From: Acanthochromis polyacanthus | Lineage: Eukaryota; Chordata; Actinopteri; Pomacentridae | Assembly (NCBI RefSeq): GCF_021347895.1 | Contig: NC_067132.1 | Coordinates: 29,295,757 to 29,359,756 of the forward strand | DNA length: 64,000 nt | Direction: 5' to 3' | Shown: in pieces, positions 27,541 through 63,525 of the stretch | Numbering within the stretch: position 1 is the first letter of the stretch | Layout of the letters: every line of letters starts with the position of its first letter | The notes under the pieces: model-generated | Seen by the model: the letters and a program-made list of their open reading frames with translations, nothing else | Told to the model about the DNA's origin: nothing | Database searches by the model: none | Translations under genes and position numbers: made by a program

Positions 27541-30500
27541 TCACTGTCTGTTCTTCTTGTGTTGTTTTCTTGTTGACCTGAGAAATATTCAGAAAACATC
27601 ATCAACACAAACAACAAACAAAAAATACATTCCGAAGTGAAAGAAGAACATCTTCTTACCTTTTTTTCTTTATATAGAAAAGTAGAAGGACGACTCCTAT
27701 TACTACTCCTATTCCTGCTCCTGCTATTAAAGCCCAAGTTTTATCCTTCATCCACTTGACTCCTCCTCCATTGACTGATTTCCCTGAAATATAAAAGATT
27801 CAGTTAATTTTCTGTCTCTGGAAGCTCCATGATGGAGTTTTGTGATCTTTGATGTCTGCAGGTCAAACACATCTTCCAGATAATCAGAGGAACTTTTGCT
27901 GTTTTACCTCCACTTACCTTCACAGAGGTGTCACTTATCAGCGTCTCCTCAGCATTACTGAGTTGACAGGTGTACATTCCCTCCTGCTCTGAAGATAAGT
28001 CCTGCAGTGTGATGTCTCCTGACTCTGACACATCCTTCACCTGCTGCCTCCACTCCTCTGAGACTGTGGAGCTGCCATCAGTCCTGCTCTGCTTCACCAT
28101 CATCTGACTGTGGTTGAATCTCCAAAGCAGGTGAGAGAAGGAAAAGTTGGAGGCAGCGCAGGTGATGATTGTTTCACTTGTTGATCCATTGATAGGAGCT
28201 GAAATGATGGAAGAGAAAAAGACAAGAATGAAGCAAGTCAATAATGTGTGAGTGGATTGTTGAGATGAGATGTTTTCCTCACTGAGTTTCCTCCAAGCAG
28301 CTCTCCTCCTGTTTGTTGGAGTTGTGACGGTGCAGCTGTAGACCAGATCAGTATGACTGTGTGAGAGGATCAGAGAACTACTGATGCTGTAAAGCTGCTC
28401 TTCATTCTGCTGGACTGTGGTTGTGTTGTGGAGGTTGATGTTGGATGGAGGTGTGGTGGACCAGGTGAGCTCAGGTTGAGGGTAGATCCCCTCTGAGCTG
28501 CAGCTCATCCTGTTTTCTACCTGCTGGATGTTCACTTCATGGACTGGAGCTGGAAAAAAAAAAAAAGACAGATAATTTAGGTGTGCAGACAGAGTTAATA
28601 ATGGTTTCAGGTTAGGTTTTATTTTTTTCTCCTACCATGAACTTTTAGGTTGATAACTGACTCCTTGTTTCTGTTGATGGTGCTGATAAAACACTTATAT
28701 CTTCCTTCATCCTGAACCTTCACTCCTGTCAGCTGCAGTGAGGCGTTTCCTCTGGAGATCTGGTCTTTGAACAGTGACGTCCTGTTTCTGTAGATCTGAT
28801 GTTGGTGTCCAAAGTCGTCGTGGTTGCTGTAGTACGAGTGGACACGAAGATTTCTTTTTGTCAACTGAAACCAGTGGATGACGACATGATCAGCGACCTG
28901 GAAGCTGCACAGTAAGATGCATCTCTCCATAAAAACACAGGACACCTCAGTATCTGCAACATCAGGTAAAGACCATGTTAGTGAGAGACTCAGACCTGCA
29001 TCAGAAACACACTTAGATTTAGTTGTTGAGCAGCGTTTGTTCTGTTACTGAGAAATAAGAATTACAACTAAACAATATTACAATAAATTAAAAGGTTAGA
29101 TAAATAAACATTTCCAGATGTTAACTTCAAGAAGTTCAGATTCGTTAATATTTCTGAGATCTGAGGCTGTAAAGAGACGATAGAATCCTAAAACATCTTT
29201 TAAACTACAATTCAATTTTCTTTATGCAGCGCAGATTCCTAACATATATCTTCTCAGTGCTTAGCATGATGAGGTACAGACCTACAAATTATAAACAAAA
29301 ACTACAAATGTAACTAGTAAATAGTAAAGGTTTAACTAGTGGAATATTTATCTCTAATGTTTTGCTGCAGCAGTTTACACCGACTGAAAATCAGATCAAA
29401 TAGAACTTTAGCATTGACTTTATACTTTTTTTAATGAGTTTCCTTGAACAAAGATAAATAACAGTCAGTATGTAAATAAAGATGATCAGGGGGTTTTTCT
29501 GATTGACTAAATGTTGGTTTTTCCATTTGATTTGTTGACAGCAGGAAGAATAGAAAATATAGTAATGAGGTTCATCTTTTCAAATCTAATGTGTCAGATT
29601 TAAGAGATCTATTAGTGGGAGCTGAAGATCATATTCTAAATTCCTAATATAATTAAAATATTTTAATTTGTGTCTGATGAAGAAAAACATTCTCATTTAT
29701 TTCTCTTTTCTTTTCCATGTTTGTTTTCCACCTCTCCTCAACTCCTCCTTTGTTCAGTGATTTTCATCTCAATCAGCTGCTGAGCATTCCTTTCCTTCAT
29801 GTCATCTTTATTCTCTACCAGACAGTTTCACCCACATCGATGTGGGGAAACAAGTGTATTCCTGTCTGCTCCCAATCTTACCTGTATGTCAGTAAATTTA
29901 GACCTGTTCCTTCCAGCTCTCTTTTTACAAGATGAGGACGGAACAGAAAGTGTTTGTTCTCCACATGAGACCAACTCAGAACTCAACTGTTTCAAACTGA
30001 GACTGTAACGAGGAAACGTCAGTTAATTTCATCTATTCTGTTTGTTTTACAGCAGTAAATAAATGATGTCCTGAAAACCAAATCTGAGTCTTCAACACAA
30101 ATATTTGACCCACAAATAAAACTGACTTTTTTCTTTTATACTTACTACTAAATATAGCCACAAATAATGACACAGAATAATTAAATACATTAAATCACAG
30201 CACATCTGTGTGAGACGAAGAAAGGTACAGCAGGTTTTCTGACATCTGACTGAATGTGTCTCTGTTTTGAAGATAAATACTGATGAATAACTAATGAAGT
30301 TACTGCTGTTGTGTGTGTGTGGTTTTTACATCTAAATATGTGACAACATTTTGACTGAGACATACTGGTTTAGTAAAGGAGATAGATTTGTCAATTAAGT
30401 GATCTATGAGACATTTATTGTAAAAACAGATTCTATTTCTGTATTAAAATAAAAAGCAGGAATGTAAAGGCAAATTTTAAACTAAACAAAGCTCTGATAT

Positions 30501-31752: not shown

Positions 31753-34700
31753 ATGAAGGATTGTGTGTTTCTCATGTTCCTGTGGATTCTGACTGATTCC
31801 AGAGGAGGTGAGTGAAAACTTTCTTCCCTTCAGAAGTTTCTTAATGTTATTTTCGATACATCAGTTTATTGTGTTTCACAGTAAATGTCTCTTATTTCAC
31901 AAAACTTCTCTAAAAACAAAAACTCTCAAAGTGTTGTATCATGATTCACAGAGTAGAACCCAAGCAGCAGCGCAGACGGGTGGGTGAAATTCATAAAGAT
32001 TTAATGAAACAAGAATATAGGAACAGGAAAAACACTTAACAACGAAGGCAGGGGAATTCAACGGGAAGGAGGAAAATAACTAAACTAAACCAAGGGCGGA
32101 CCCGAAGGCCGAAGTAAACTAAACGAAATTAAAAGGGAAGGGGGCTTACCGAGTCCGGGGAGAAGAAGAAGGAAGAGGCGGCGGGGGGGAGCTGTCCGAG
32201 ATAGTGGGGGGGATTGAGTGGAGCGGACCAGATCATCAGAGAGGCGACGGGTCCTGAAGAGCAGGAATGTAATGGCGATAATCCAATAATTAAACAGAGT
32301 CCGGGAAAAGGGCGTGTAACAAGGAGGGAGAGACGGTGAGCAGGATCGAGCAGTGAGTCCGTGTTGGCGCCAGCTGTGTTGGAGAGCACAGCCGCTTGTC
32401 ATTCAGTTGACGAGCTGGAGGAGGAGGGCGTGACATGTTGTCACTGTCAAAGAAGTTCAAATGTCAAACCTGGAATCTGTAATGGGGCTTTAAAAAGGGT
32501 GAGCTGTCACAGAGTATATTAAATTATTCTGGATCATTTATTAGTGTATTTGCTGGTAAGTATTTGTTAAAAATGACATTTCTTTGTGGGTCAGGTATTT
32601 GTATTGAAGGATCAGATTTGGTCCTCAGGAATCCATTTATTTACTGCTGATAAACAGAATAGATTAAATTAACTGATGTTTCCTTGTTATAGTCTCAGTT
32701 TTAAACAGTTGAGCTCTGAGTTGGTCTGAAGAACTGTAGAGAAACTGTTCTTATCTCGCTCTGTAAAATGAGAACAAAGGGAAATGTTCCTGTGGTTCAC
32801 AAACATTTAAAATAGAAACTACCAGACTGCAGCAAACAGTAACGTGTTTCCCACATGAAGGTGTGCAGAACTGATGAGTCAAAAAAATAAAACTTCGTTT
32901 ACATTCAACACTCACACTATGACTGGTGTTCATCTTTGGACAGAAAGGAGGTTTTTGATTCATCCAAGGATGATTTATCAGCACTCAAGAAGGAGATTTA
33001 AATTCTGATAAAATAACGACACACAATATAGCACTGTTTAGTTGCAGTTACAGCAAACAGGACCTGGTTTCTCACATGAAGGTACTGATGAGATAAAACA
33101 GTTCTTTTCTCACACTTCAGTGGGTTAAAGATAACTATAGTTTACAGCTGAAGACATCAGAACTGTTTCTAACAAATAAAACTTCATTTATATTCAACTC
33201 ACACTATGACTGTTGTTCATCTTTGGACAGAAATTAAGTTTTTGATTCATTTGATGATGAAAGAGGATTTATCAGCTCAATGTTCTGAAATTTACTGAAT
33301 ATCTGATCAAGGAGGAGATTTAAATTCTGATAAAATGCTGAACAAATTAAATAACACACAACATAGCACTGTTTAGTTGAAGTTATTATTTCTCAGTAAA
33401 AGAACAAACGCTGCTCAACAACTAAATCTAAGTGTGTTTCTGATGCAGGTCTGAGTCTCTCACTAACATGGTCTTTACCTGATGTTGCAGATACTGAGGT
33501 GTCCTGTGTTTTTATGGAGAGATGCATCTTACCGTGCAGCTTCCAGGTCGATACTCAAGTCATCATCTACTGGATTCAGATGAAAGGACTTCATGTCCAC
33601 TCGTTCTACAACAACCGGGACCTGCTTGGATATCAGCACCAGATCTACAGAAACAGGACGTCACTGTTCAAGGACCAGATCTCCAGAGGAAACGCCTCAC
33701 TGCAGCTGACAGGAGTGAAGGTTCAGGATGAAGGAAGATACAGATGTCGCATCGACACTTTCAGTGAAATCAATGATTCAATTATCAATGTCAAAGTTGA
33801 CGGTATGAGAAAAATACAGAAAAACATCAATTCATTTTATTTAACCTGGAATGATTAGTAACTGTCCCTGCATCTAAATTCTCCCCTTTTCCAGCTCCAG
33901 TCCATGAAGTGAACATCCAGCAGGTAGAAAACAGGATGAGCTGCAGCTCAGAGGGGATCTACCCTCAACCTGAGCTCACCTGGTCCACCACACCTCCATC
34001 CAACATCAACCTCCACAACACAACCACAGTCCAGCAGAATGAAGAGCAGCTTTACAGCATCAGTAGTTCTCTGATCCTCTCACACAGTCACACTGATCTG
34101 GTCTACAGCTGCACCGTCAGAACCCGCAGAAACAGCTGGACGACCACTCTGACTAGAACAAGTAAGTGGACTTATGTTCAGAGCAGGAGGGAATGTACAC
34201 CTGTCAACTCAGTAATGCTGAGGAGACGCTGATAAGTGACACCTCTGTGAAGATAAGTGGAGGTAAAACAGCAAAAGTTCCTCTGATTATCTGGAAGATG
34301 TGTTTGACCTGCAGACATCAAAGATCACAAAACTCCATCATGGAGCTTCCAGAGACAGAAAATTAACTGAATCTTTTATATTTCAGGGAATTCAGTAAAT
34401 GTTGAAGAAATCAAGTGGATGATGGATAAAACTACTTGGGCTTTAATAGCAGCATTTGCAGCAACAGTATTTGCAATTGGCATTCTACTGTACTGTAGAA
34501 AGAATAAAGGTAAGAAGATGTTCTGAATTTAATTTGGAACTCATTTGTTGTTTGTGGTGATTTTCTGGACTTTGAATGTTTCTGAATGAAACCAGTAAGT
34601 AAATGTTCTTTGTTAAACTTGTGTGCTGCTCTGTGTGAACTACAGTAAATGAGGGAACATGTTAAAGGAGAAAACTGTTGTCATCAAGTTAGTTTTCTGG

Positions 34701-35018
34701 GATGTTTCAGGAACATTTCCACCACTTATTTTCTACAACATGCTTTGTTGTATCAGCTAAGATGATGATCTCAGTCAGAGTTCAACAACATCCATGAAAT
34801 GAAAACATTAAAGTCACTGAAATGAGGAGAAAACAGAAAATCACATGAAGGAGTCAGGATTGATGAGAAGATTCATTTTACACTACAGACTAAAAAAGAA
34901 TAAACAAGGAACTATTTTGGTTCTTATGTTGATCTGTTTTGGGGCTGAACTGTATTCTATTTTAGTTTCAGAATCATTTGTGATGATAAAAATGCGGGGA
35001 GACCTGAAACAGTGCTGA
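31753..35018 (+). CDS. hhla2-like: HHLA2-like B7-family protein, gene 5 (two Ig domains)
   Basis: Exons: leader 31753-31807 (MKDCVFLMFLWILTDSRG), V-like 33449-33802 (second acceptor 33491), C-like 33895-34161, transmembrane 34387-34509, last 34972-35018 (TGA). The frame closes exactly, about 281 residues. The V exon, membrane exon and 3' flank are nearly those of gene 7 (shared F-G loop with SEINDS, shared helix exon starting GNSVNVEEIKWM). Gene 7 keeps the third Ig exon, while gene 5 has the 95-bp stump seen in genes 1 to 3. The usual tail exon is skipped because its acceptor and most of its length are gone near 34590. The first intron carries a 498-bp insertion. Confidence 0.82.
31938..32435. 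mobile_element. 498-bp insertion in intron 1 of gene 5
   Basis: Comparison with the same intron of gene 3 shows an extra segment bounded by the direct repeat TGTTGT (31932-31937 and 32436-32441). It is richer in G and C and purine-biased, with no coding I recognise. The family is not identified. Confidence 0.6.
34168..34262 (+). pseudogene. 95-bp stump of the third Ig exon, gene 5
   Basis: Identical breakpoint to genes 1, 2 and 3, although gene 5 is otherwise the sister of gene 7, which has the whole exon. Confidence 0.75.
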
Positions 35019-36181
35019 AAACCTGAAGAACACAGTTAAACCACCATCAGATGAACTTCAGTCCAGTCTGTGAGGTTTGACTGCTCTGATGAATGTTTGT
35101 TGAAATCCCGTCTTTGGAGAACAAGTGGAGACAAACAGGATAAATGAGCCTCTGTACCAGTGACTGAAGGATAAACGCTGCTGTGATGTTTTAAAGTCTT
35201 CATTAGTGGGTACCTGAAGCCATAAGAAGACTGAGAATGTAGTTGTTTTTTTTTACAGTGGTGACCTGAAAGAACCTCTGGAAACCTTTAAGTGGGACAA
35301 CTAAACCAAAGGAGTTCAGTTCTGCTGTTGTAAACAGACTGGTTGTCATGATTTAAACTGATGTACTTTATTATTGGACAGTATTTATAGTAGAGCACAG
35401 ATTATAGTGTTTCTGAAGTACAAGATTCAGTGTGATCAGTATAAGTAATGAAGTATTATTGTGTTACATGTCAGGATGGATTTATATAGAGGAAATATCT
35501 TTGATTGAAATTATTTTCATTATTTTTATACCAAGAAAACATTTAAAACTCAGGCATTTTCTGCTCCATGATTGCTTCCTTCTCCAAACTGCAGTTTTTC
35601 TTGTGTGACTTTATTTTCTGTGTAAATAGTTTGTCAGACATGAAGCAGCTGCTGTGTTTCCAGTTTGTGTCCTGCAGGGGGCGCTGGAAGCTCAGTCATT
35701 GATTTCCATGTGTGGAAAGTGAAAGAGTTAAAGGGAGAAAAAGATCAGTGCTGTCAGTGTGTGGAGCTGAATGGAAATAAACTACAGAGCTCATATTCTC
35801 TGGAATCAACAAACACTGAGGATTCATTCTGTGTTTTAACAGTTTTTCACAGCAGTGGAGGAAGAACTGCTTTGTTGGATCAGTTCTTTGTTGATTTTCA
35901 TTTAATGAAGAAGAAAAATCCAGAAAATCTCCAAGTTTTCCTTCAGAGATCTGTCTTAGAAACCTACATGAAATCCATTTCTTCTTCAAAATCTACTGAA
36001 ATTTTTGGTGTTAAATATTCTTTGAGATTTTTGAAAATCAGGTTTTTCACCTTTTAAAGTCTGATTTCTGCTGTTCTTCTGTGTTTTATGAAGATAACAT
36101 TAACTGAGATGGTTCAGTCCCAAACTTCTGCACTTGAATCAAACAACGTCTGGAATTGTGTTTTTCTCTGAACTTTGGATG
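35019..36181. other. 3' flank of gene 5, duplicated downstream of gene 7
   Basis: Nearly identical to 62357-63519. It contains a 130-codon open frame (35665-36057) with a twin at 63003-63395. That frame has no ATG in good context and lies in what looks like 3' untranslated sequence, so it is not called as a gene. Confidence 0.6.
35671..35687 (+). promoter_or_regulatory. CTCF-like motif
   Basis: CCTGCAGGGGGCGCTGG matches the CTCF core. The same site recurs at 63009 in the duplicated flank. Confidence 0.35.
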
Positions 36182-36187
36182 TTGGTG
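36182..36187. repeat. Left target-site duplication TTGGTG
   Basis: Exact 6-bp copy of 42372-42377. The unoccupied site at 63520-63525 has a single TTGGTG between the same flanks. Confidence 0.9.
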
Positions 36188-36258
36188 AGAGAGAGGATCT
36201 AACCACAATGTGTCAAAATTTGATGGATCTTTTGTTCACTGGGCGAACAAAAGGAAAC

Positions 36259-36588
36259 ATGAGGTCAGCATAAATTAGCATAAATTAAGCAAGCAATGAG
36301 GTCAGCATAAATTAGCATAAATTAAGCAAGCAATGAGGTCAGCATAAATTAAGCAAGCAATGAGGTCAGCATAAATTAGCATAAATTAAGCGAGCAATGA
36401 GGTCAGCATAAATTAGCATAAATTAAGCAAGCAATGAGGTCAGCATAAATTAGCATAAATTAAGCAAGCAATGAGGTCAGCATAAATTAAGCAAGCAATG
36501 AGGTCAGCATAAATTAGCATAAATTAAGCGAGCAATGAGGTCAGCATAAATTAAGCGAGCAATGAGGTCAGCATAAATTAAGCAAGCA
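36259..36588 (+). repeat. Tandem array of 37- and 27-bp units, left arm
   Basis: Ten contiguous units starting ATGAGGTCAGCATAAATT: six long (37 bp, with an extra 10-bp AGCATAAATT-type step) and four short (27 bp). The order long-long-short-long(G variant) occurs twice, giving a higher-order repeat of 138 bp. A degenerate unit follows at 36589. There are no spacers between units. Confidence 0.92.
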
Positions 36589-36625
36589 ATGACATCATCA
36601 TAAATTTGCATAAATTAAGAAAGAA

Positions 36626-36666
36626 ACTACTACTACTACTACTACTATTACTACTACTATTACTAG
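36626..36666 (+). repeat. (CTA)n microsatellite before ORF1
   Basis: CTA/TTA trinucleotide run between the array and ORF1, mirrored at about 41867-41907. Confidence 0.9.
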
Positions 36667-36686
36667 TTGAAGGTGCACTCACCAAC

Positions 36687-37382
36687 ATGTTTGCGAAAAA
36701 GAGTCCCGACGGAGCATCGATGATCAGCGAGACGGTTGTGACTATTTTGCAAAACTCTAAGGCTACCCCTGATCGTCCAACGAAGACTGCGGTGTATGTG
36801 CGGCGGACTCAGAAGCCACCATCTGAGTCTTTACACGAAGAGTGGTCTTTGGAGCCTTATGGAGGTCGCGGTAGCTGGGGTTATGTGTTCAAGTATGAGA
36901 CGGGGGAATTGTGTTTGTATCAGCGGGATGAAGGTGAAGCATTGGGGGGTGCGATGTTGCAGGTTACGCTGTCTTCCACCGACTGGGCGGTGTTACAGCT
37001 GACTAACCCTATGAGTTACCCGCATGGAGTACCCTCTCCTGTGGAAAAGCGAGTGTGCGGTGTTGGGCCTTGCTCCGATGAGTTTTCTGCAATTTGGTTG
37101 GCAAAAACTTCGGGTCCCTGCCGTACTTACTATCGCGCCCGTTACACTGGAAGCGGTGGTTTTCTTTCTCCTAGCGAGTGCCAGAAGAATAAGGAAAAGG
37201 ACAATTTTGTCCTGGAAACTTTCAGCTCAGGGTGTGGAGTTTACCACACCGTGCTAGTTCTACCAATGACGGCTTGGAATGTGAAGACAAGTGAGATGAG
37301 GGATAAAATTAATTCACTCTTTCACAGTTGTCGTGATTGGAAGGATACTCTGATGACGAAAAGAGCTCACACAATGTGCTAG
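36687..37382 (+). CDS. Palindrome ORF1, left copy (231 aa, unknown function)
   Basis: Start chosen at the ATG at 36687 (AACATG context). The frame is open further upstream, but only across a CTA trinucleotide run that would read as polyleucine and has no ATG. The product has eight cysteines (including CGVGPC at about residues 114-119) and a central part rich in Gly, Tyr and Trp that suggests a beta-rich fold. There is no membrane segment after the chosen start. I do not recognise the family. It is the outermost gene of the arm, 109 bp before ORF2 and on the same strand. Both copies in the palindrome have the same length and sequence as far as I can compare, so the frame is probably translated or was until recently. 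Confidence 0.6.
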   Translation: MFAKKSPDGASMISETVVTILQNSKATPDRPTKTAVYVRRTQKPPSESLHEEWSLEPYGGRGSWGYVFKYETGELCLYQRDEGEALGGAMLQVTLSSTDWAVLQLTNPMSYPHGVPSPVEKRVCGVGPCSDEFSAIWLAKTSGPCRTYYRARYTGSGGFLSPSECQKNKEKDNFVLETFSSGCGVYHTVLVLPMTAWNVKTSEMRDKINSLFHSCRDWKDTLMTKRAHTMC

Positions 37383-37406
37383 ACCACGCCTTACTTGAAG
37401 GCTCGT

Positions 37407-37414
37407 TATAAAAG
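37407..37414 (+). promoter_or_regulatory. TATA box upstream of ORF2/ORF3, left arm
   Basis: TATAAAAG, 78 bp before the ORF2 start codon and 25 bp after the end of ORF1. It is the best core-promoter signal in the element and would drive ORF2 plus the closely linked ORF3. Confidence 0.55.
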
Positions 37415-37491
37415 AGAGAGAGAAATTTGCATCCGAAACCAGACTGGCCACTACATTCCCAGGTGAAACCCGCCATTAAAGAGAAAAAAAA

Positions 37492-38352
37492 ATGAGCAGA
37501 CGTCTCACTACCACTTTCCTCGGCCCCATAACTTTGGGCTCGCGGCCTATGGAAGATTCACCGGTATCGTCCCCGCTGCCCATGGAGATCTGCCTCGATC
37601 CCCCAGCCCCGCAGCCCATGGAGGCCTCCCTCGATCCCCCAGCCCCGCAGCCCATGGAGGCCTCCCTCGATCCCCCAGCCCTCGCAGCCCGCGGAAGTTT
37701 CACCGGAGCTCTCTCTTCGATCATCTCACCACCACCGTCACCTACATCTGACACAGGCTCTACAACTCAGACTCCCGACTCTGATATGACTCTGTCATTG
37801 GAGACCCTCCCTCGGACCCCGCCCAGCACCCCCCTGGTGAGTCATCCGGCTCAACCTCCATCTTCCCCGCCAAAGGAGGCTGACAAGGGAGATGAGGCTG
37901 ATGGGTGGTTGTCGAAGGCCTTCGTCAGCGTGGTGAGAACAGCCATACTTTATCTCCTCGATAAAGTTCTGGAAACATACAGACAGGATTGCTACGGATG
38001 CCAGACCGACCATCCTAGCCAGAAAGAGCACCCATGCCTGGAAACAATTACCTCTCATTTCTTGGAGGACAATTTCTACGCCATCACGGGCAAGATCTAC
38101 ACCCCCAACTTTATCCCAGCCATCCAACACCTCTTAGAACTGCATAACTTCCCCACGGAGGAGAAACGCGTCAGAACCGTTGCTGGAACTGTTTTGTTTG
38201 ACCTGAGATCAGAGCCGTACATCCAGCAGACCATCGACGATATGTACTGCGACCTGATGAAAAACCACAACACCGTCAAATTGGCAGACCTTGCAACGGT
38301 GGCCTACATATGGAAGGACCCCGCAACGCCCTGTAGATACATGAAGTTTTAA
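37492..38352 (+). CDS. Palindrome ORF2, left copy (286 aa, Pro-rich N-terminus, Cys/His box)
   Basis: The first ATG after the TATA box, preceded by an A-run. Residues 1-135 are Pro/Ser/Thr-rich and probably disordered; they include a 12-residue tandem repeat around DPPAPQPMEASL. Residues 139-286 look helical and hold a candidate zinc box C167-x2-C170-x3-H174-x5-H180-x-C182 (with HPSQ inside), followed by NFIPAIQHLLELHNF. This layout would suit a regulatory or DNA-handling protein, but I do not recognise the family and assign no function. ORF3 follows after 4 nt on the same strand, as in compact viral genomes. The mirror copy is at 41041-40181. Confidence 0.65.
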   Translation: MSRRLTTTFLGPITLGSRPMEDSPVSSPLPMEICLDPPAPQPMEASLDPPAPQPMEASLDPPALAARGSFTGALSSIISPPPSPTSDTGSTTQTPDSDMTLSLETLPRTPPSTPLVSHPAQPPSSPPKEADKGDEADGWLSKAFVSVVRTAILYLLDKVLETYRQDCYGCQTDHPSQKEHPCLETITSHFLEDNFYAITGKIYTPNFIPAIQHLLELHNFPTEEKRVRTVAGTVLFDLRSEPYIQQTIDDMYCDLMKNHNTVKLADLATVAYIWKDPATPCRYMKF

Positions 38353-38356
38353 AGTG

Positions 38357-38827
38357 ATGGGGAATAACGAGGCTAAAGTCGTGACAGAGGTGGAGAGACA
38401 CACGACCGTGTCTCATCTCATAGAACTCTTGAGTCAAATGATTTACAACAGAGTTTCAACCGGTAGAAAACCAAACACATTTAGGGTTAGAGCAACAGAC
38501 GTTGAGAAACTGGAAAAAATGATGGAAGCGGTTAGAACTCGCTCTTTTTCTCCACCTTGGAGCGAGATCGTATGTCGTGCCGTGTCCGTCAGCAGTCCTG
38601 ATTTGTCGGCTGCCTTTAGAGACATTTTACAAGAACTGGTGAAGGATGTTCTCAAACCCTGGCACCTGACTGCTTTTTATACCCTGTTTGTCGATGTCAT
38701 TTGTGAGCTTCTGCAAAACAACCACCCTGTAAACATCCAAGTCGAACTGAGAAAATTACATTATAGTATCAACCAAGCAGCAGATTATTCTGTCTTAGCT
38801 CAGACTTTAGATATGATAAAAAGTTAA
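38357..38827 (+). CDS. Palindrome ORF3, left copy (156 aa, possibly Bcl-2-like)
   Basis: Start taken at the ATG at 38357, four bases after the ORF2 stop (an in-frame GTG precedes it). The product is predicted to be almost entirely alpha-helical, without a signal peptide. Residues about 87-118 (F-x2-I-x2-EL-x2-D followed by W-x3-AF and a hydrophobic run) resemble the BH1 segment of Bcl-2 proteins, though the usual Asn-Trp-Gly-Arg core is not present and no BH2 or C-terminal anchor is clear. Anti-apoptotic Bcl-2 homologues are known in several DNA viruses, so the idea fits, but the resemblance is weak. It could equally be an unrelated helical protein. It is the last gene before the central AT-rich spacer. 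Confidence 0.6.
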   Translation: MGNNEAKVVTEVERHTTVSHLIELLSQMIYNRVSTGRKPNTFRVRATDVEKLEKMMEAVRTRSFSPPWSEIVCRAVSVSSPDLSAAFRDILQELVKDVLKPWHLTAFYTLFVDVICELLQNNHPVNIQVELRKLHYSINQAADYSVLAQTLDMIKS

Positions 38828-39705
38828 TTGTAAGTTTTGTGTTTCAAGAATTATTTTTCTGTCAACAATTTTTTATTCTGTTGTTCAAAAACAGTTAGTT
38901 GTAAATTTTGCATGTTAATTTTTTCTGTACTGTTTTATTAAAAATGTTAGTTGTAAGTTTTGCATGTTAATTTTTATTCTGTGCTGTTGTTGTTTTTTAA
39001 AACAAGTTAGTTGTAAGTTTTGTGTTTCAAGAATTATTTTTCTGTCAACAATTTTCTGTTGTTTAAAAAAGTTTAAGTTTTGCATGTTAACAATTTTTTC
39101 TGTTGTTTTTTTAAAGTTAGTTGTAAGTTTTGCGTGTTAACAATTTTCTCTGTATCATTGTTTAAGTTTTTGTGTATCAAGAATTATTTCTGTACCGTCG
39201 TTTTATTTTTAAAAAAAAATGTTGGTTGTAAGTTTTGTATCAAGTTTTTTTATTAATTTTTTCATTAAACAACAGCACAGAAAAAATCTTGATACAAAAC
39301 TTACAACCAACATTTTTTTTTAAAAATAAAACGACGGTACAGAAATAATTCTTGATACACAAAAACTTAAACAATGATACAGAGAAAATTGTTAACACGC
39401 AAAACTTACAACTAACTTTAAAAAAACAACAGAAAAAATTGTTAACATGCAAAACTTAAACTTTTTTAAACAACAGAAAATTGTTGACAGAAAAATAATT
39501 CTTGAAACACAAAACTTACAACTAACTTGTTTTAAAAAACAACAACAGCACAGAATAAAAATTAACATGCAAAACTTACAACTAACATTTTTAATAAAAC
39601 AGTACAGAAAAAAATTAACATGCAAAATTTACAACTAACTGTTTTTGAACAACAGAATAAAAAATTGTTGACAGAAAAATAATTCTTGAAACACAAAACT
39701 TACAA
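38828..39705. repeat. Central AT-rich spacer with degenerate repeats and loop
   Basis: Each half consists of imperfect copies of about 50-65 bp built on GTTAGTTGTAAGTTTTG and TTTCTGT...AACAATTTT words; the halves are inverted to each other. The unpaired loop is 39245-39287. There are no genes. Transcripts from ORF3 in both arms would converge here, and T-rich runs could hold poly(A) signals, but none is clear. Confidence 0.75.
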
Positions 39706-40176
39706 TTAACTTTTTATCATATCTAAAGTCTGAGCTAAGACAGAATAATCTGCTGCTTGGTTGATACTATAATGTAATTTTCTCAGTTCGACTTGGATGT
39801 TTACAGGGTGGTTGTTTTGCAGAAGCTCACAAATGACATCGACAAACAGGGTATAAAAAGCAGTCAGGTGCCAGGGTTTGAGAACATCCTTCACCAGTTC
39901 TTGTAAAATGTCTCTAAAGGCAGCCGACAAATCAGGACTGCTGACGGACACGGCACGACATACGATCTCGCTCCAAGGTGGAGAAAAAGAGCGAGTTCTA
40001 ACCGCTTCCATCATTTTTTCCAGTTTCTCAACGTCTGTTGCTCTAACCCTAAATGTGTTTGGTTTTCTACCGGTTGAAACTCTGTTGTAAATCATTTGAC
40101 TCAAGAGTTCTATGAGATGAGACACGGTCGTGTGTCTCTCCACCTCTGTCACGACTTTAGCCTCGTTATTCCCCAT
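39706..40176 (-). CDS. Palindrome ORF3, right copy (156 aa)
   Basis: Mirror of 38357-38827, same frame length and same predicted product. It converges with the left copy across the central spacer. The same cautions about the Bcl-2-like reading apply. Confidence 0.6.
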   Translation of the reverse strand: MGNNEAKVVTEVERHTTVSHLIELLSQMIYNRVSTGRKPNTFRVRATDVEKLEKMMEAVRTRSFSPPWSEIVCRAVSVSSPDLSAAFRDILQELVKDVLKPWHLTAFYTLFVDVICELLQNNHPVNIQVELRKLHYSINQAADYSVLAQTLDMIKS

Positions 40177-40180
40177 CACT

Positions 40181-41041
40181 TTAAAACTTCATGTATCTAC
40201 AGGGCGTTGCGGGGTCCTTCCATATGTAGGCCACCGTTGCAAGGTCTGCCAATTTGACGGTGTTGTGGTTTTTCATCAGGTCGCAGTACATATCGTCGAT
40301 GGTCTGCTGGATGTACGGCTCTGATCTCAGGTCAAACAAAACAGTTCCAGCAACGGTTCTGACGCGTTTCTCCTCCGTGGGGAAGTTATGCAGTTCTAAG
40401 AGGTGTTGGATGGCTGGGATAAAGTTGGGGGTGTAGATCTTGCCCGTGATGGCGTAGAAATTGTCCTCCAAGAAATGAGAGGTAATTGTTTCCAGGCATG
40501 GGTGCTCTTTCTGGCTAGGATGGTCGGTCTGGCATCCGTAGCAATCCTGTCTGTATGTTTCCAGAACTTTATCGAGGAGATAAAGTATGGCTGTTCTCAC
40601 CACGCTGACGAAGGCCTTCGACAACCACCCATCAGCCTCATCTCCCTTGTCAGCCTCCTTTGGCGGGGAAGATGGAGGTTGAGCCGGATGACTCACCAGG
40701 GGGGTGCTGGGCGGGGTCCGAGGGAGGGTCTCCAATGACAGAGTCATATCAGAGTCGGGAGTCTGAGTTGTAGAGCCTGTGTCAGATGTAGGTGACGGTG
40801 GTGGTGAGATGATCGAAGAGAGAGCTCCGGTGAAACTTCCGCGGGCTGCGAGGGCTGGGGGATCGAGGGAGGCCTCCATGGGCTGCGGGGCTGGGGGATC
40901 GAGGGAGGCCTCCATGGGCTGCGGGGCTGGGGGATCGAGGCAGATCTCCATGGGCAGCGGGGACGATACCGGTGAATCTTCCATAGGCCGCGAGCCCAAA
41001 GTTATGGGGCCGAGGAAAGTGGTAGTGAGACGTCTGCTCAT
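40181..41041 (-). CDS. Palindrome ORF2, right copy (286 aa)
   Basis: Mirror of 37492-38352 with the same Pro-rich repeats and C-x2-C-x3-H-x5-H-x-C box. The A-run just before its start codon is one base shorter than in the left arm and does not affect the frame. Confidence 0.65.
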   Translation of the reverse strand: MSRRLTTTFLGPITLGSRPMEDSPVSSPLPMEICLDPPAPQPMEASLDPPAPQPMEASLDPPALAARGSFTGALSSIISPPPSPTSDTGSTTQTPDSDMTLSLETLPRTPPSTPLVSHPAQPPSSPPKEADKGDEADGWLSKAFVSVVRTAILYLLDKVLETYRQDCYGCQTDHPSQKEHPCLETITSHFLEDNFYAITGKIYTPNFIPAIQHLLELHNFPTEEKRVRTVAGTVLFDLRSEPYIQQTIDDMYCDLMKNHNTVKLADLATVAYIWKDPATPCRYMKF

Positions 41042-41117
41042 TTTTTTTCTCTTTAATGGCGGGTTTCACCTGGGAATGTAGTGGCCAGTCTGGTTTCGGA
41101 TGCAAATTTCTCTCTCT

Positions 41118-41125
41118 CTTTTATA
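41118..41125 (-). promoter_or_regulatory. TATA box upstream of ORF2/ORF3, right arm
   Basis: Complement of TATAAAAG, mirror of 37407-37414. Confidence 0.55.
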
Positions 41126-41149
41126 ACGAGCCTTCAAGTAAGGCGTGGT

Positions 41150-41845
41150 CTAGCACATTGTGTGAGCTCTTTTCGTCATCAGAGTATCCTTCCAATCACG
41201 ACAACTGTGAAAGAGTGAATTAATTTTATCCCTCATCTCACTTGTCTTCACATTCCAAGCCGTCATTGGTAGAACTAGCACGGTGTGGTAAACTCCACAC
41301 CCTGAGCTGAAAGTTTCCAGGACAAAATTGTCCTTTTCCTTATTCTTCTGGCACTCGCTAGGAGAAAGAAAACCACCGCTTCCAGTGTAACGGGCGCGAT
41401 AGTAAGTACGGCAGGGACCCGAAGTTTTTGCCAACCAAATTGCAGAAAACTCATCGGAGCAAGGCCCAACACCGCACACTCGCTTTTCCACAGGAGAGGG
41501 TACTCCATGCGGGTAACTCATAGGGTTAGTCAGCTGTAACACCGCCCAGTCGGTGGAAGACAGCGTAACCTGCAACATCGCACCCCCCAATGCTTCACCT
41601 TCATCCCGCTGATACAAACACAATTCCCCCGTCTCATACTTGAACACATAACCCCAGCTACCGCGACCTCCATAAGGCTCCAAAGACCACTCTTCGTGTA
41701 AAGACTCAGATGGTGGCTTCTGAGTCCGCCGCACATACACCGCAGTCTTCGTTGGACGATCAGGGGTAGCCTTAGAGTTTTGCAAAATAGTCACAACCGT
41801 CTCGCTGATCATCGATGCTCCGTCGGGACTCTTTTTCGCAAACAT
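41150..41845 (-). CDS. Palindrome ORF1, right copy (231 aa)
   Basis: Mirror of 36687-37382 with the same length and cysteine pattern. It is preceded on the minus strand by the mirrored CTA run and tandem array. Confidence 0.6.
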   Translation of the reverse strand: MFAKKSPDGASMISETVVTILQNSKATPDRPTKTAVYVRRTQKPPSESLHEEWSLEPYGGRGSWGYVFKYETGELCLYQRDEGEALGGAMLQVTLSSTDWAVLQLTNPMSYPHGVPSPVEKRVCGVGPCSDEFSAIWLAKTSGPCRTYYRARYTGSGGFLSPSECQKNKEKDNFVLETFSSGCGVYHTVLVLPMTAWNVKTSEMRDKINSLFHSCRDWKDTLMTKRAHTMC

Positions 41846-41943
41846 GTTGGTGAGTGCACCTTCAACTAGTAATAGTAGTAGTAATAGTAGTAGTAGTAGT
41901 AGTAGTTTCTTTCTTAATTTATGCAAATTTATGATGATGTCAT

Positions 41944-42300
41944 TGCTTGCTTAATTTATGCTGACCTCATTGCTCGCTTAATTTATGCTGACCTCATTGC
42001 TCGCTTAATTTATGCTGACCTCATTGCTCGCTTAATTTATGCTAATTTATGCTGACCTCATTGCTTGCTTAATTTATGCTGACCTCATTGCTTGCTTAAT
42101 TTATGCTAATTTATGCTGACCTCATTGCTTGCTTAATTTATGCTAATTTATGCTGACCTCATTGCTCGCTTAATTTATGCTAATTTATGCTGACCTCATT
42201 GCTTGCTTAATTTATGCTGACCTCATTGCTTGCTTAATTTATGCTAATTTATGCTGACCTCATTGCTTGCTTAATTTATGCTAATTTATGCTGACCTCAT
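41944..42300 (-). repeat. Tandem array of 37- and 27-bp units, right arm
   Basis: Eleven units in the same order as the left array, plus one additional short (27-bp, G variant) unit at the inner end. This single unit accounts exactly for the 27-bp shift of the symmetry axis between the ORFs and the outer ends. Confidence 0.92.
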
Positions 42301-42371
42301 GTTTCCTTTTGTTCGCCCAGTGAACAAAAGATCCATCAAATTTTGACACATTGTGGTTAGATCCTCTCTCT

Positions 42372-42377
42372 TTGGTG
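42372..42377. repeat. Right target-site duplication TTGGTG
   Basis: Pairs with 36182-36187. After it the flank continues AAAAGCCAGAAAT exactly as in the empty site after 63525. Confidence 0.9.
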
Positions 42378-43194
42378 AAAAGCCAGAAATCTCTGATTAT
42401 ATTATTATTAAACTCACTGATGCATTAACGTGTTCATCATTTATTATGTGGAACAACTTCTACCACCTTTAAACAATGTTGGAAAGTCTGAAACTTATAA
42501 CCTTCACAGCACATTAAATGTCAGAAATGATTAATTTAAAAACACTAATTGAAGCACAGATATTCAGGTCAGCATCAGTTTATGACAAACAACCACAAAG
42601 ATGTCACTTGATGTGGAACTCTGAGGTTAACAACAGTTTTTATAAAAAGCAGACACCACCTCCTCTGAACTCAGCAGAGTTGAACTTTCTTATTTTTTCA
42701 CTTCATTCCAAACGTGTTGCAGCACGACTGAGCTATTAGACCTCCTCCTTATTGGCAATGAACAAATCCAGTTTCTACCTTCAGGGTCTGAATTACACCA
42801 CCTCAGGCAGTCACAGGAAACATGAATAACGATTTTACACCACAAATTTCCTGCCTGCAGCTGATTGGACACCACCTCAGGCAGCCACAGGAAACATCAA
42901 TAACGATTTTACACCACAAATTTCCTGCCTGCAGCTGATTGGACGAGTGTTTGACCTGGAGGCGGCCTGCTGGATGTTTAACCAACAGTCTGTTTGGAGA
43001 ATCAGACTTCATTTCAGATCATTTACGCTTTGATTTAAAGTTTTTCTCCAGTTTTCAGAGAGAGAACTGAAGCATTTTGCAGCAGGATCCAGGCAGAAAA
43101 GTTTCCACCTGCTGAACATCTTCCTTCATGGCAGGAATCAGAAACTCAGACTTTTCTATCCACATCTGTTTTCCAACATTAACCGTGCAGGAAT
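42378..43194. other. Continuation of the gene 5 3' flank and 5' flank of gene 6
   Basis: Matches 63526-64000 up to the window end. At about 42800-42945 a segment of about 71 bp (CCTCAGGCAG...CTGATTGGAC) is tandemly repeated. The last 200 bp must include the gene 6 promoter. Confidence 0.55.
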
Positions 43195-58959: not shown

Positions 58960-61900
58960 ATGAAGGATTCTGTGTTTCTGATGTTTCTGTGGATTCTGAC
59001 TGTTTCCAAAGGAGGTGAGAGAAAACTGATAACATGATTATTACTTTATTCAGTTTAAAATTTACTCTCTATTGTGTTTTTATGGTAAATGTTTTTCAGT
59101 TCACAAATCTTTATTCGCTACAAAACCAGTACGTTGTGGTTGTTACTGAAGTTTAAATGTAAAAAAACAAACAAACAAAAAAAAACTTTCATTTATTTTT
59201 AAAGAAGTTTTAAAGCAAATTATTAAAGAACAAACATTTCTGTTTGTGGGTCATATTTATTTTTATTTTATTTACATATTTATTTAATGCTGATAAACAC
59301 AATGGATCAAATTATGTGGTGTTTTCTTGTTACAGTCTCAGTTTAAACAGGTGATCTCTGAGGGTGGGGGTGATTTAAAGACTAAATTTAAACTTACAGG
59401 AAGGCTGACAGCAGAGGACAGAACAAACCTTTTTCTCTACATTGATGTGGAAGAGACTCTCTGGCAGAGAATAAAGATGAAATGACAGATAGAAATCCAC
59501 AGCTGATTGACAACAGGTGACTGAACAGAGGAATGAAGGACATCAGGTTCTAGGAGAAAAATGAGAATGAGAAGAACTGAGACAGTTTCTCCTTAGACAC
59601 AAATACTGATTCTGGTGGGGGGGGGGGGGGGGGGGGGGGGAGGCATGGGGGAGTCAGAGAACTCGAGCACAGACAGGAAGAACATTAAGAAATTTATTTA
59701 AACTAGAATGAAGAAAATACAAAGAGAATCAAGATTAAGAGGAAAACCAAATCTAGCTAAATATAAAATATGCAAAACTATCAAATCCAACACACAAAGT
59801 CTCAAGGGAAAAAAAAACTAACATGAACAACTACACTAAACAAACAGAGTACTCACAAACCAGGGGAAAACTAGACAGAAGGGACAGGGAAGCAAGCTCA
59901 GGGAATCCATGGAACCATGGGGAGAACAGGATCCAAAAGGGGAGCAAAGTCTCTGAAGGGATGTGATTCTTTATGATCCGGTGGGGAGTGAATGAAGGAA
60001 TGAGGTTTATACAGCTGGGGAGTGCTTGGAAACAGGTGAGCTGAATGGGCTGATTGCTGCAGCTGAACCACATTGTCTTCATGAGACTGCAGGCAGGCAG
60101 GAGATGCAGGAAAGAAGGAGAGAGAGAGACACAGGGGCAAAAGAGAAAGATGACGGATACAGGGAGACACACAGGTCAAAACTGATACAGGACAAGAGGA
60201 AGAAAGATGGAAATAAGAGGGAAAGAGGGAGAGGAACGGGCCTGGAGCAGGGATCATGACACAAACTTTTTCTGATTTTATCACCTCTTTACAGCCTCAG
60301 CTCCCAGAAATATTTAGAATTCTAAACTTGTTGAAGTTTCATGAATCAGAAACTGGAGACTGAAAGATCTGAACTCATGAAAACATATTTTTACAAACTT
60401 GTTGATTTTATAATCTTATTTTCATTTACTGTATATTGTTTAGTTGTAATTCTTATTTCTCAGTAACAGAACAAACGCTGCTCAACAACTAAATCTAAGT
60501 GTGTTTCTGATGCAGGTCTGAGTCTCTCACTAACATGGTCTTTACCTGATGTTGCAGATACTGAGGTGTCCTGTGTTTTTATGGAGAGATGCATCTTACT
60601 GTGCAGCTTCCAGGTCGATACTCGAGTCGTCATCCGCTGGATTCACGTGAAAGGACTTCGTGTCCACTCGTTCTACAGCAACCAAGACCTGCTTGGAGAT
60701 CAGCACCAGATCTACAGAAACAGGACGTCACTGTTCAAGGACCAGATCTCCAGAGGAAACGCCTCACTGCAGCTGACAGGAGTGAAGGTTCAGGATGAAG
60801 GAAGATACAGATGTCGCATCAACATTTTTAGTGAAATCAATGATTCATTTATCAATGTCAAAGTTTACGGTACGAGAAAAATACAGAAAAACATCAATTC
60901 ATTTTATTTAACCTGGAATTATTATTAACTGTCCCTGCATCTAAATTCTCCTCTTTTGCAGCTCCAGTCCATGAAGTGAACATCCAGCAGGTAGAAAACA
61001 GGATGAGCTGCAGCTCAGAGGGGATCTACCCTCAACCTGAGCTCACCTGGTCCACCACACCTCCATCCAACATCAACCTCCACAACACAACCACAGTCCA
61101 GCAGAATGAAGAGCAGCTTTACAGCATCAGTAGTTCTCTGATCCTCTCACACAGTCATACTGATCTGGTCTACAGCTGCACCGTCACAACTCCAACAAAC
61201 AGGAGGAGAGCTGCTTGGAGGAAACTCAGTGAGGAAAACATCTCATCTCAACAATCCACTCACACATTATTGACTTGCTTCATTCTTGTCTTTTTCTCTT
61301 CCATCATTTCAGCTCCTATCAGTGGATCAACAAGTGAAACAATCATCACCTGCGCTGCCTCCAACTTTTCCTTCTCTCAACTGCTTTGGAGATTCAACCA
61401 CAGTCAGATGATGGTGAAGCAGAGCAGGACTGATGGCAGCTCCACAGTCTCAGAGGAGTGGAGGCAGCAGGTGAAGGATGTGTCAGAGTCAGGAGACATC
61501 ACACTGCAGGACTTATCTTCAGAGCAGGAGGGAATGTACACCTGTCAACTCAGTAATGCTGAGGAGACGCTGATAAGTGACACCTCTGTGAAGATAAGTG
61601 GAGGTAAAACAGCAAAAGTTCCTCTGATTATCTGGAAGATGTGTTTGACCTGCAGACATCAAAGATCACAAAACTCCATCATGGAGCTTCCAGAGACAGA
61701 AAATTAACTGAATCTTTTATGTTTCAGGGAATTCAGTAAATGTTGAAGAAATCAAGTGGATGAAGGATAAAACTACTCGGGCTTTAATAGCAGTATTTGC
61801 AGCAACAGTACAAGCAGTCTGCATTCTACTGTACTGTAGAAAGAATAAAGGTAAGAAGATGTTCTGAATTTAATTTGGAACTCATTTGTTGTTTGTGGTG

Positions 61901-62356
61901 ATTTTCTGGACTTTGAATGTTTCTGAATGAAACCAGTAAGTAAATGTTCTTTGTTAAACTTGTGTTCTGCTCTGTGTGAACTACAGTAAATGAGGGAACA
62001 TGTTAAAGGAGAAAACTGTTGTCATCAAGTTAGTTTTCTGGGATGTTTCAGGAACATTTCCACCACTTATTTTCATCAACATGCTTTGTTGTATCAGCTA
62101 AGATGATGATCTCAGTCAGAGTTCAACAACATCCATGAAATGAAAACATTAAAGTCACTGAAATGAGGAGAAAACAGAAAATCACATGAAGGAGTCATGG
62201 TTGATGAGAAGATTCATTTTACACTACAGACTAAAAAAGAATAAACAAGGAACTATTTTGGTTCTTATGTTGATCTGTTTTGGGGCTGAATTGTATTCTA
62301 TTTTAGTTTCAGAATCATTTGTGTTGATAAAAATGCGGGGAGACCTGAAACAGTGA
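58960..62356 (+). CDS. hhla2-like: HHLA2-like B7-family protein, gene 7 (three Ig domains)
   Basis: Exons: leader 58960-59014 (MKDSVFLMFLWILTVSKG), V-like 60516-60869 (second acceptor 60558), C-like 60962-61228, third Ig 61313-61603, transmembrane 61728-61850, last 62313-62356 (TGA). The frame closes at about 377 residues. The V domain keeps Cys, Trp (VIRW) and D-E-G-R-Y-R-C, with an F-G loop like gene 5. The third Ig exon and the 84-bp intron before it are almost the same as in gene 4. That intron is in frame and lacks stops, so its retention would add a hydrophobic segment. The tail is very short (ESFVLIKMRGDLKQ). The first intron holds a 24-G run and a low-complexity insertion. Confidence 0.85.
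59617..59640 (+). repeat. Run of 24 G
   Basis: Unbroken homopolymer in intron 1 of gene 7, likely to fold as a G-quadruplex or to be of uncertain length in the assembly. Confidence 0.9.
59641..60262. mobile_element. Repeat-like purine-rich segment in intron 1 of gene 7
   Basis: Absent from the matching introns of genes 3 and 5. It begins at the G run and ends at GATCATGACAC, and resembles in style the segments at 24400-24900 and 31938-32435. No coding capacity or clear terminal repeats. Confidence 0.4.
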
Positions 62357-63008
62357 TGAAAACCTGAAGAACACAGTTAAACCGCCATCAGATGAACTTC
62401 AGTCCAGTCTGTGAGGTTTGACTGTTCTGATGAATGTTTGTTGAAATCCCGTCTTTGGAGAACAAGTGGAGACAAACAGGATAAATGAGCCTCTGTACCA
62501 GTGACTGAAGGATAGACACTGCTGTGATGTTTTAAAGTCTTCATTAGTGGGTACCTGAAGCCATCAGAAGACTGAGAATGTAGATTTTTTTTACAGTGGT
62601 GGCCTGAAAGAACCTCTGGAAACCTTTAAGTGGGACAACTAAACCAAAGGAGTTCAGTTCTGCTGTTGTAAACAGACTGGTTGTCATGATTTAAACTGAT
62701 GTACTTTATTATTGGACAGTATTTATAGTAGAGCACAGATTATAGTGTTTCTGAAGTACAAGGTTCAGTGTGATCAGTAGAAGTAATGAAGTATTATTGT
62801 GTTACATGTCAGGATGGATTTATATCGAGGAAATATCTTTGATTGAAATTATTTTCATTATTTTTATACCAAGAAAACATTTAAAACTCAAGCATTTTCT
62901 GCTCCATGATTGCTTCCTTCTCCAAACTGCAGTTTTTCTTGTGTGACTTTATTTTCTGTGTAAATAGTTTGTCAGACATGAAGCAGCTGCTGTGTTTCCA
63001 GTTTGTGT

Positions 63009-63025
63009 CCTGCAGGGGGCGCTGG
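63009..63025 (+). promoter_or_regulatory. CTCF-like motif
   Basis: Duplicate of the site at 35671. Confidence 0.35.
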
Positions 63026-63519
63026 AAGCTCAGTCATTGATTTCCATGTGTGGAAAGTGAAAGAGTTAAAGGGAGAAAAAGATCAGTGCTGTCAGTGTGT
63101 GGAGCTGAATGGAAATAAACTACAGAGCTCATATTCTCTGGAATCAACAAACACTGAGGATTCATTCTGTGTTTTAACAGTTTTTCACAGCAGTGGAGGA
63201 AGAACTGCTTTGTTGGATCAGTTCTTTGTTGATTTTCATTTAATGAAGAAGAAAAATCCAGAAAATCTCCAAGTTTTCCTTCAGAGATCTGTCTTAGAAA
63301 CCTACATGAAATCCATTTCTTCTTCAAAATCTACTGAAATTTTTGGTGTTAAATATTCTTTGAGATTTTTGAAAATCAGGTTTTTCACCTTTTAAAGTCT
63401 GATTTCTGCTTTTCTTCTGTGTTTTATGAAGATAACATTAACTGAGATGGTTCAGTCCCAAACTTCTGCACTTGAATCAAACAACGTCTGGAATTGTGTT
63501 TTTCTCTGAACTTTGGATG

Positions 63520-63525
63520 TTGGTG
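63520..63525. other. Unoccupied integration site TTGGTG
   Basis: Single TTGGTG between flanks that border the palindromic element at 36182 and 42377. It shows the pre-insertion state. Confidence 0.9.

What the first reader, a model, noticed from the sequence alone, without database searches (positions are those of the whole stretch)
36182..42377. A 6.2-kb palindromic, Maverick/adintovirus-like element with a 6-bp duplication and a visible empty site
Seen: inverted arms of about 3 kb, ends AGAGAGAGG/CCTCTCTCT, TTGGTG on both sides, and one TTGGTG at 63520 between the same flanks. Known: Maverick/Polinton integrations give 6-bp duplications and start with AG. Inferred: a linear virus-like genome end was copied into a snap-back dimer and integrated by an integrase supplied from elsewhere. 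A fully palindromic element carrying complete genes in both arms is, to my knowledge, not a described class in fish.
Basis: partly seen in the sequence, partly recalled or inferred. Interest (0 to 1): 0.92.

Follow-up and report, generated by a model that had tools for sequence, protein, structure and literature searches.

The report
Snap-back palindrome of a fish Maverick
This stretch of a vertebrate (probably fish) chromosome holds a 6.2-kb DNA palindrome made of two mirror copies of one end of a Maverick virus-like element; it is likely a defective 'snap-back' viral genome that formed during replication and was pasted into the chromosome by an integrase that would have come from full-length relatives, which matters because it would be a physical trace of how these virus-like elements live outside the chromosome.

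Summary
In detail: 36188-42371 (6,184 bp) is a near-perfect palindrome with TTGGTG on both sides and a paralogous empty site at 63520-63525. The same genome holds 5 long two-ended elements (13.6-24.2 kb) with the same termini and 6-bp duplications; all 5 contain polymerase-B matches, and the 2 tested encode a chromodomain integrase. They fit vertebrate Mavericks. The arm is their integrase-side end, cut off 54 nt before the integrase ATG.

The centre records the event. Two long elements carry an 8-bp inverted repeat around a 43-nt loop exactly there. In the palindrome the arm is copied back from that stem and the loop remains once, 43/43 identical: the expected scar of a strand that folded back and copied itself. 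A second palindrome (C10, TSD CGCATG) has the same centre; a third copy shows a short fold-back at another inverted repeat. The palindrome encodes no polymerase or integrase, so integration in trans is inferred. Each arm carries three open genes that recur in other Maverick-type loci of this genome; one is predicted to have a Bcl-2 fold.

Whether the palindromes formed once and spread as a satellite, or formed twice, is unresolved. New variant of a known kind.

The parts
36182..36187 (.). left 6-bp target-site duplication TTGGTG
42372..42377 (.). right 6-bp target-site duplication TTGGTG
36188..36258 (+). terminal sequence of the left arm, (AG)4-type end; shared by both ends of the long elements
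   Evidence: 17 termini in the genome
42301..42371 (-). terminal sequence of the right arm
36259..36599 (+). subterminal array of 27/37-bp repeats, left arm
41933..42300 (-). subterminal array, right arm, one 27-bp unit longer
36687..37382 (+). ORF1, left arm, 231 aa from its ATG (listed as 36606-37382, 258 aa, from a TTG); accessory gene of unknown function
41150..41845 (-). ORF1, right arm, same protein
37492..38352 (+). ORF2, left arm, 286 aa; invariant C..C...HPSQ..H.C motif in 8 of 8 aligned sequences
40181..41041 (-). ORF2, right arm, same protein
38357..38827 (+). ORF3, left arm, 156 aa; predicted Bcl-2-like fold
39706..40176 (-). ORF3, right arm, same protein
39237..39244 (+). left half of the 8-bp stem, GTATCAAG
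39245..39287 (.). 43-nt single-copy loop; exact reverse complement of the loop in C8 and C24
39288..39295 (+). right half of the stem, CTTGATAC, after which the arm is copied back
63520..63525 (.). empty site (TTGGTG once) in the paralogous copy of the flank

Best explanation
The element is a 6,184-bp palindrome made of two copies of the integrase-side end of a vertebrate Maverick, flanked by a 6-bp target duplication, and it likely arose when a viral strand growing from the terminus snapped back at an 8-bp inverted repeat, copied itself to the end, and the resulting linear palindrome was integrated by an integrase that would have come from a full-length relative. Shown: the anatomy, the target duplication, the empty site, long relatives with PolB and integrase, the stem-loop at the junction point in two of them, the single kept loop, and a second palindrome with the same centre and another target duplication. 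Inferred: (1) protein-primed synthesis starts at the terminus and runs about 3.1 kb inward; (2) the 3' end at CTTGATAC leaves its template, pairs with GTATCAAG upstream in the same strand and is extended back to the terminus; (3) one more round makes a duplex with the viral terminus at both ends; (4) because integrase would need only the termini, a full-length relative supplies it in trans; (5) the product is a defective, helper-dependent genome that carries three accessory genes twice, one of them predicted Bcl-2-like, and no replication gene.
For: Same termini and 6-bp duplications in 7 of 7 two-ended insertions, 2 palindromic and 5 long. PolB matches in 5 of 5 long elements; rve and chromodomain above cut-off in 2 of 2 tested (C8, C24). 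The junction stem and 43-nt loop are in C8 and C24, and the palindrome's loop is their exact reverse complement; single-copy spacers bounded by short inverted homology are the mark of fold-back duplications (PMC3907307, abstract and passages). The polarity fits: the strand that returns on itself has its 5' end at the viral terminus. Second palindrome with the same centre and TSD CGCATG. Third, short fold-back in copy C2b at GGAGGCCTCC, the longest of 13 inverted repeats found in 4,554 nt of the C8 end. Arms of each palindrome share private variants. Empty site 299/300 and 298/300.
Against: No read, virion or extrachromosomal DNA was seen. The parental stem-loop is not an unusually stable fold (z -1.06; 30 of 200 shuffles as good) and the predicted best fold uses a neighbouring pairing, not the 8-bp stem. 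Both palindromes turn at the same one of 13 candidate repeats, which a random accident would not favour unless it is a hot spot or a single origin. No PolB-side palindrome was found (40 of 855 candidates scored). That the terminus is a protein-primed origin and that integrase acts in trans rest on family knowledge, not on a test here.
Confidence: 0.82

Rival explanations
1. Host-made fold-back: an extrachromosomal viral DNA broke or stalled, and host enzymes made the palindrome by fold-back repair of the broken end or by ligation of leading and lagging strands at the inverted repeat (ODIRA-like); integrase then inserted it.
For: The same junction anatomy is reported for human fold-back duplications (PMC3907307), and ODIRA starts from short interrupted inverted repeats and gives an extrachromosomal inverted dimer (PMC4689423, abstract and outline).
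Against: A protein-primed polymerase that starts at the terminus explains the strand polarity without host repair. Human spacers there were 766 bp and longer, here 43 nt.
Confidence: 0.13
2. Rearrangement after integration: two full-length copies inserted in opposite orientation and the DNA between them was deleted.
For: Would also give inverted arms with viral termini outside.
Against: The two flanks share one 6-bp duplication and match a single empty site at 299/300 and 298/300 bases; two separate insertions would not. A second locus has the same centre with other flanks.
Confidence: 0.01
3. Assembly artefact from fold-back reads.
For: Missed-adapter and fold-back long reads make false palindromes (recalled).
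Against: Such reads would mirror host flank too; here the flanks differ and carry a target duplication. The arms differ by a 27-bp unit, the centre is asymmetric and matches a stem-loop of long relatives, and a second palindrome exists.
Confidence: 0.02
4. An ordinary foldback or MITE-type DNA transposon moved by an unrelated transposase.
For: Long inverted repeats and small size.
Against: Termini, array, genes and duplication length are those of the Mavericks in the same genome, arms 0.2-0.5% from C8 and C24.
Confidence: 0.01

Closest known systems
Vertebrate Mavericks/Polintons (PMC8097293; section 7 and passages)
   Same: (AG)n ends, 6-bp duplications; the long relatives have PolB and integrase modules pointing inward, with accessory genes outside
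   Different: the palindrome has only the terminus and integrase-side accessory genes, twice; no polymerase, integrase, protease or capsid gene; 6.2 kb against 12.7-24.6 kb for intact elements in that paper
Adintoviruses (PMC11071296; passages)
   Same: the relatives' integrase has a C-terminal chromodomain; a gene predicted Bcl-2-like (that paper reports anti-apoptotic homologues in most mammal-associated species)
   Different: OTU domain of PolB and hexon match not tested; the palindrome carries none of the defining genes
AAV snapback genomes, a class of defective particles (PMC8235507; abstract and passages)
   Same: self-complementary molecule with one viral end at both sides, symmetric or with a loop
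   Different: parvovirus with rolling-hairpin replication, seen in virions; here a Maverick, seen integrated in a chromosome
Palindromic defective adenovirus genomes (recalled; Daniell 1976 was seen only as a reference and is not held)
   Same: protein-primed linear dsDNA virus; inverted duplication of one end, as I recall
   Different: not integrated; could not be checked here
Fold-back inverted duplications in human chromosomes (PMC3907307; abstract and passages)
   Same: single-copy spacer bounded by short inverted homology (2-8 bp at 13 junctions)
   Different: chromosomal, spacers 766 bp and longer, no mobile termini or target duplication

Membership tests
Vertebrate Maverick, applied to the palindrome | (AG)3-type termini | tested here: met
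   AGAGAGAGG / CCTCTCTCT; motif from PMC8097293
Vertebrate Maverick, applied to the palindrome | 6-bp target duplication | tested here: met
   TTGGTG, with empty site
Vertebrate Maverick, applied to the palindrome | own protein-primed PolB and integrase | tested here: not met
   no such gene among its ORFs; PolB hits in the genome lie elsewhere; junction lies 54 nt before the integrase ATG of C8/C24. Hence a derivative, not an autonomous member
Vertebrate Maverick, applied to the long relatives | PolB | tested here: met
   5 of 5 long elements
Vertebrate Maverick, applied to the long relatives | rve integrase | tested here: met
   2 of 2 tested; 3 not tested
Vertebrate Maverick, applied to the long relatives | adenovirus-type protease and packaging ATPase | tested here: inconclusive
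   one element (C24) looked at: Peptidase_C5 above cut-off; ATPase only by generic P-loop matches, Pox_A32 just under its cut-off
Vertebrate Maverick, applied to the long relatives | major and minor capsid genes | tested here: inconclusive
   ORFs in the expected place of C24, but no Pfam match for the four tested
Adintovirus | integrase with C-terminal chromodomain | tested here: met
   relatives C8 and C24
Adintovirus | PolB with OTU-like domain; recognisable hexon | not tested
   -
Snap-back defective genome | one viral end at both sides of a self-complementary molecule with a turn at inverted homology | tested here: met
Snap-back defective genome | present in particles or interferes with the parent | not testable with these tools
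Bcl-2 family (ORF3) | Bcl-2 helical fold | tested here: met
Bcl-2 family (ORF3) | binding of BH3 partners / effect on apoptosis | not testable with these tools
   -

The most novel reading that the evidence does not exclude
Palindromic snap-back genomes are a self-spreading satellite class of Mavericks: formed at one hairpin, replicated as palindromes by the parents' polymerase (which keeps their arms identical), integrated repeatedly by the parents' integrase, and delivering a double dose of accessory genes (one Bcl-2-like) in a convergent arrangement that could also make hairpin RNA against the parent virus.
Probability: 0.35. Interest if true: 0.88.

Novelty: new variant of a known kind. 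Interest (0 to 1): 0.74.

Why it matters
PMC8097293 notes that Maverick particles have not been observed (start of abstract), so the life of these elements outside the chromosome is inferred mainly from gene content. This palindrome looks like a physical trace of that life: a linear replication intermediate that misfired, had the viral terminus at both ends and was then integrated with a clean 6-bp duplication. If the reading is right, Maverick integrase needs only the ends and works on DNA lacking its own gene, and defective-interfering-like genomes of a eukaryotic dsDNA element can enter the germline. It also gives a search rule for other genomes: opposite-strand pairs of the integrase-side genes within about 6 kb, 6-bp duplication, stem and single-copy loop at the centre.

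Tried and rejected
Family searches of ORF1-3: Pfam gave only weak matches under the cut-offs, PHROGs none, PDB sequence profiles only E 0.54 and weaker for ORF1 and none for ORF2 and ORF3. Homologous-protein search: ORF2 and ORF3 none at E <= 0.001, ORF1 two, the better 45% identical to a Nibea albiflora hypothetical protein. IMG/VR scans with ORF1 and ORF2: no relative; ORF3 was not scanned. ORF2 model unusable (pLDDT 40); ORF1 was not folded. Viral fold library for ORF3: nothing at E <= 0.001, a mixed list in which viral apoptosis regulators recur.

One origin or two: FastTree put the window arms with C8 (0.744) and the C10 arms apart; window and C8 share one variant, C10 and C24 another, but window, C10 and C24 share a third against C8, C5 and C21. 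Outside the array the differences are few and mostly in low-complexity DNA. Left open.

dN/dS: 0.18-0.29 for ORF2 and ORF3 against relatives about 40% identical, with dS 1.9-3.0, near saturation; ORF1 there gave no dS. Close copies gave 0.28-1.6 from few changes. So no claim on present selection.

Folding: one search folded the wrong stretch (the terminus) and is not used; one search is the right one and is unremarkable; an RNA-parameter fold inside one search also preferred the neighbouring pairing. The bacterial promoter scan says nothing for a vertebrate element.

Rejected: joining of two insertions, assembly artefact, ordinary MITE (see rivals). A PolB-side palindrome was looked for and not found (40 of 855 candidates scored). 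Reverse-strand matches there within the elements were about 85-100 bp.
Full report
The element. Window 36188-42371 is 6,184 bp long. Its arms are inverted copies of each other and, aligned end to end, differ by one 27-bp repeat unit, two 1-bp homopolymer indels and one mismatch at the edge of the central loop; outside the subterminal array they differ at 0 of 2,623 aligned sites. TTGGTG lies on both sides. The flank 34168-36188 recurs at 61509-63526 at 98.3% identity (31 mismatches in 2,021), and that copy holds TTGGTG once, at 63520-63525; the element's two flanks match it at 299/300 and 298/300 bases. The duplicated flank has diverged far more than the two arms, so the insertion is likely younger than the host duplication, unless the arms convert each other.

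The parents. The window lies in a 957-Mb assembly, G000. The terminal 77 bases occur 17 times. They make 7 two-ended insertions, each with a 6-bp duplication: the window palindrome (TTGGTG), a second palindrome at C10:26715980-26721864 (CGCATG), and five long elements: C8 (GGTATG, 17.3 kb), C24 (GATATG, 17.1 kb, one extra AG at the right end), C21 (TATATG, 24.2 kb), C2 (GGTATG, 13.6 kb), C5 (CGCGTG, 15.8 kb, one changed terminal base; a 7-bp duplication is the other reading). The remaining three termini are single: a duplicated end of C5, a truncated copy C2b, and a diverged fragment on C10. DNA_pol_B_2 matches lie inside 5 of 5 long elements. In C8 and C24 the ORF that starts 54 nt beyond the junction point is a 360-aa integrase with rve and chromodomain matches above cut-off; the other three were not tested. 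Pieces of C24 also encode an adenovirus-type protease (Peptidase_C5 above cut-off) and a P-loop ATPase-like protein; four ORFs in the expected place of capsid and related genes had no Pfam match. This fits the architecture reported for vertebrate Mavericks: (AG)3 ends, 6-bp duplications, an integrase module and a PolB module pointing inward, accessory genes outside them (PMC8097293, section 7 and passages). The palindrome is two copies of the integrase-side end, cut off just before integrase.

The centre. In C8 and C24 the point where the palindrome turns is an 8-bp inverted repeat, GTATCAAG / CTTGATAC, around a 43-nt loop. In the palindrome the stem is kept, the loop is present once as the exact reverse complement seen from the left arm (43/43), and beyond the second stem half the sequence is not the parent's but the arm copied backwards. 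Read from the right arm, the strand runs terminus, arm, stem, loop, stem as in the parent and then returns on itself. That is the product expected if a strand whose 5' end is the viral terminus folded back at the stem and was extended. A similar scar, a single-copy spacer bounded by 2-8 bp of inverted homology (13 junctions), marks fold-back inverted duplications in human chromosomes (PMC3907307, abstract and passages). In C5, C21 and C2 the second stem half has one changed base, so the palindromes' source was likely C8/C24-like, in line with arm divergence (0.2-0.5% from C8 and C24, about 1% from C5 and C21, about 5% from C2). The stem-loop is not an exceptional fold: z -1.06 as DNA, 30 of 200 shuffles as good, and a neighbouring pairing is preferred.

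Two palindromes and a third fold-back. The C10 palindrome has the same centre, letter for letter in loop and stem, and its own target duplication. Its arms differ from each other at 2 of 2,622 sites outside the array, and from the window arms at 8. Each palindrome's two arms share private variants, as expected if one arm is copied from the other. Whether there was one origin and spread, or two events at one hairpin, stays open: the variants conflict. C2b runs about 1.45 kb in from its terminus, turns at GGAGGCCTCC and returns for about 64 bp that resemble a neighbouring repeat unit before unrelated sequence. GGAGGCCTCC is the longest of 13 inverted repeats (8 bp or more, loop under 80) in 4,554 nt of the C8 end. 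Searches with the three arm proteins gave 129 matches in 44 loci, 28 of them with all three; 2 of 44 carry them on both strands, the window and C10. The PolB-side end of C8 was found once per element, not as a palindrome (40 of 855 candidates scored).

Mechanism. Most likely: protein-primed synthesis from the terminus, loss of the template at the inverted repeat, snap-back and self-copying to the terminus, a second round to a linear duplex with viral ends on both sides, and integration by integrase from a full-length relative. The first and last steps lean on Maverick biology: PMC8097293 expects the end repeats to serve jumping-back in protein-primed replication, and the extra AG at one end of C24 fits such slippage. 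The sequence itself shows the fold-back junction, a palindrome that existed when it was inserted (one duplication, one empty site), and the missing genes. Host-made fold-back of a viral DNA is the main rival (0.13). Joining of two insertions, artefact and MITE are contradicted by the duplication, the empty site, the flanks and the second copy.

Known or new. Snapback defective genomes are known in AAV virions (PMC8235507, abstract and passages). Palindromic defective adenovirus genomes I recall but could not check. Searches for palindromic, fold-back or non-autonomous Mavericks and for related terms showed no description of one in the listings; one search found 0 papers, the others were capped at 12-20 rows of up to 310 papers, and only open-licence papers are held. 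PMC8097293 does not use the word palindrome. I therefore call it a new variant of a known kind: a Maverick snap-back genome integrated in a vertebrate chromosome.

Noticed in passing
all insertions; window 36182-36187: The target duplications read TTGGTG, CGCATG, GGTATG, GATATG, TATATG, GGTATG, CGCGTG: 7 of 7 end in TG on the contig strand, and the two single ends C2b and C10b are also preceded by TG. A target preference for RTG is suggested; the asymmetry is unexplained.
   Followed up: partly
L030 2040-2150 (C2:47185739-47185849): Truncated copy C2b folds back at GGAGGCCTCC and returns for about 64 bp before unrelated DNA: a third fold-back, at another inverted repeat.
   Followed up: partly
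C24:4581977-4581979: The right end of the C24 element has one AG more than the left end, as slippage at a protein-primed terminus would give.
   Followed up: no
44 loci: ORF1-ORF2-ORF3 form an accessory cassette (28 of 44 loci have matches to all three) with proteins that had almost no relatives in the 5.8-billion protein set.
   Followed up: partly
36259-36599 and C10 array (L021): The subterminal array differs between copies in unit order; the C10 palindrome's first unit resembles the array start at the PolB-side end of C8 (L022 560-615), which may mean exchange between the two ends.
   Followed up: no
27804-28535 (-) and 60976-61707 (+): Butyrophilin-like immunoglobulin-domain ORFs in inverted copies; the window is a cluster of duplicated host sequence with reverse-transcriptase ORFs at 4345-5088 and 12470-13420.
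   Followed up: partly
42795-42942: Two tandem copies of a 74-bp unit, 97% alike, in the host flank right of the element.
   Followed up: no
L022 about 2690-2970; window about 6995-7270: A short repeat of about 280 bp inside the PolB-side end of C8 matches many places in the genome at 70-92%, one of them in the window; probably a dispersed repeat.
   Followed up: no
C5:44306845 and C5:45074216: The end of the C5 element and its flank recur in inverted orientation about 0.77 Mb away, a segmental duplication that carries a second PolB copy.
   Followed up: no
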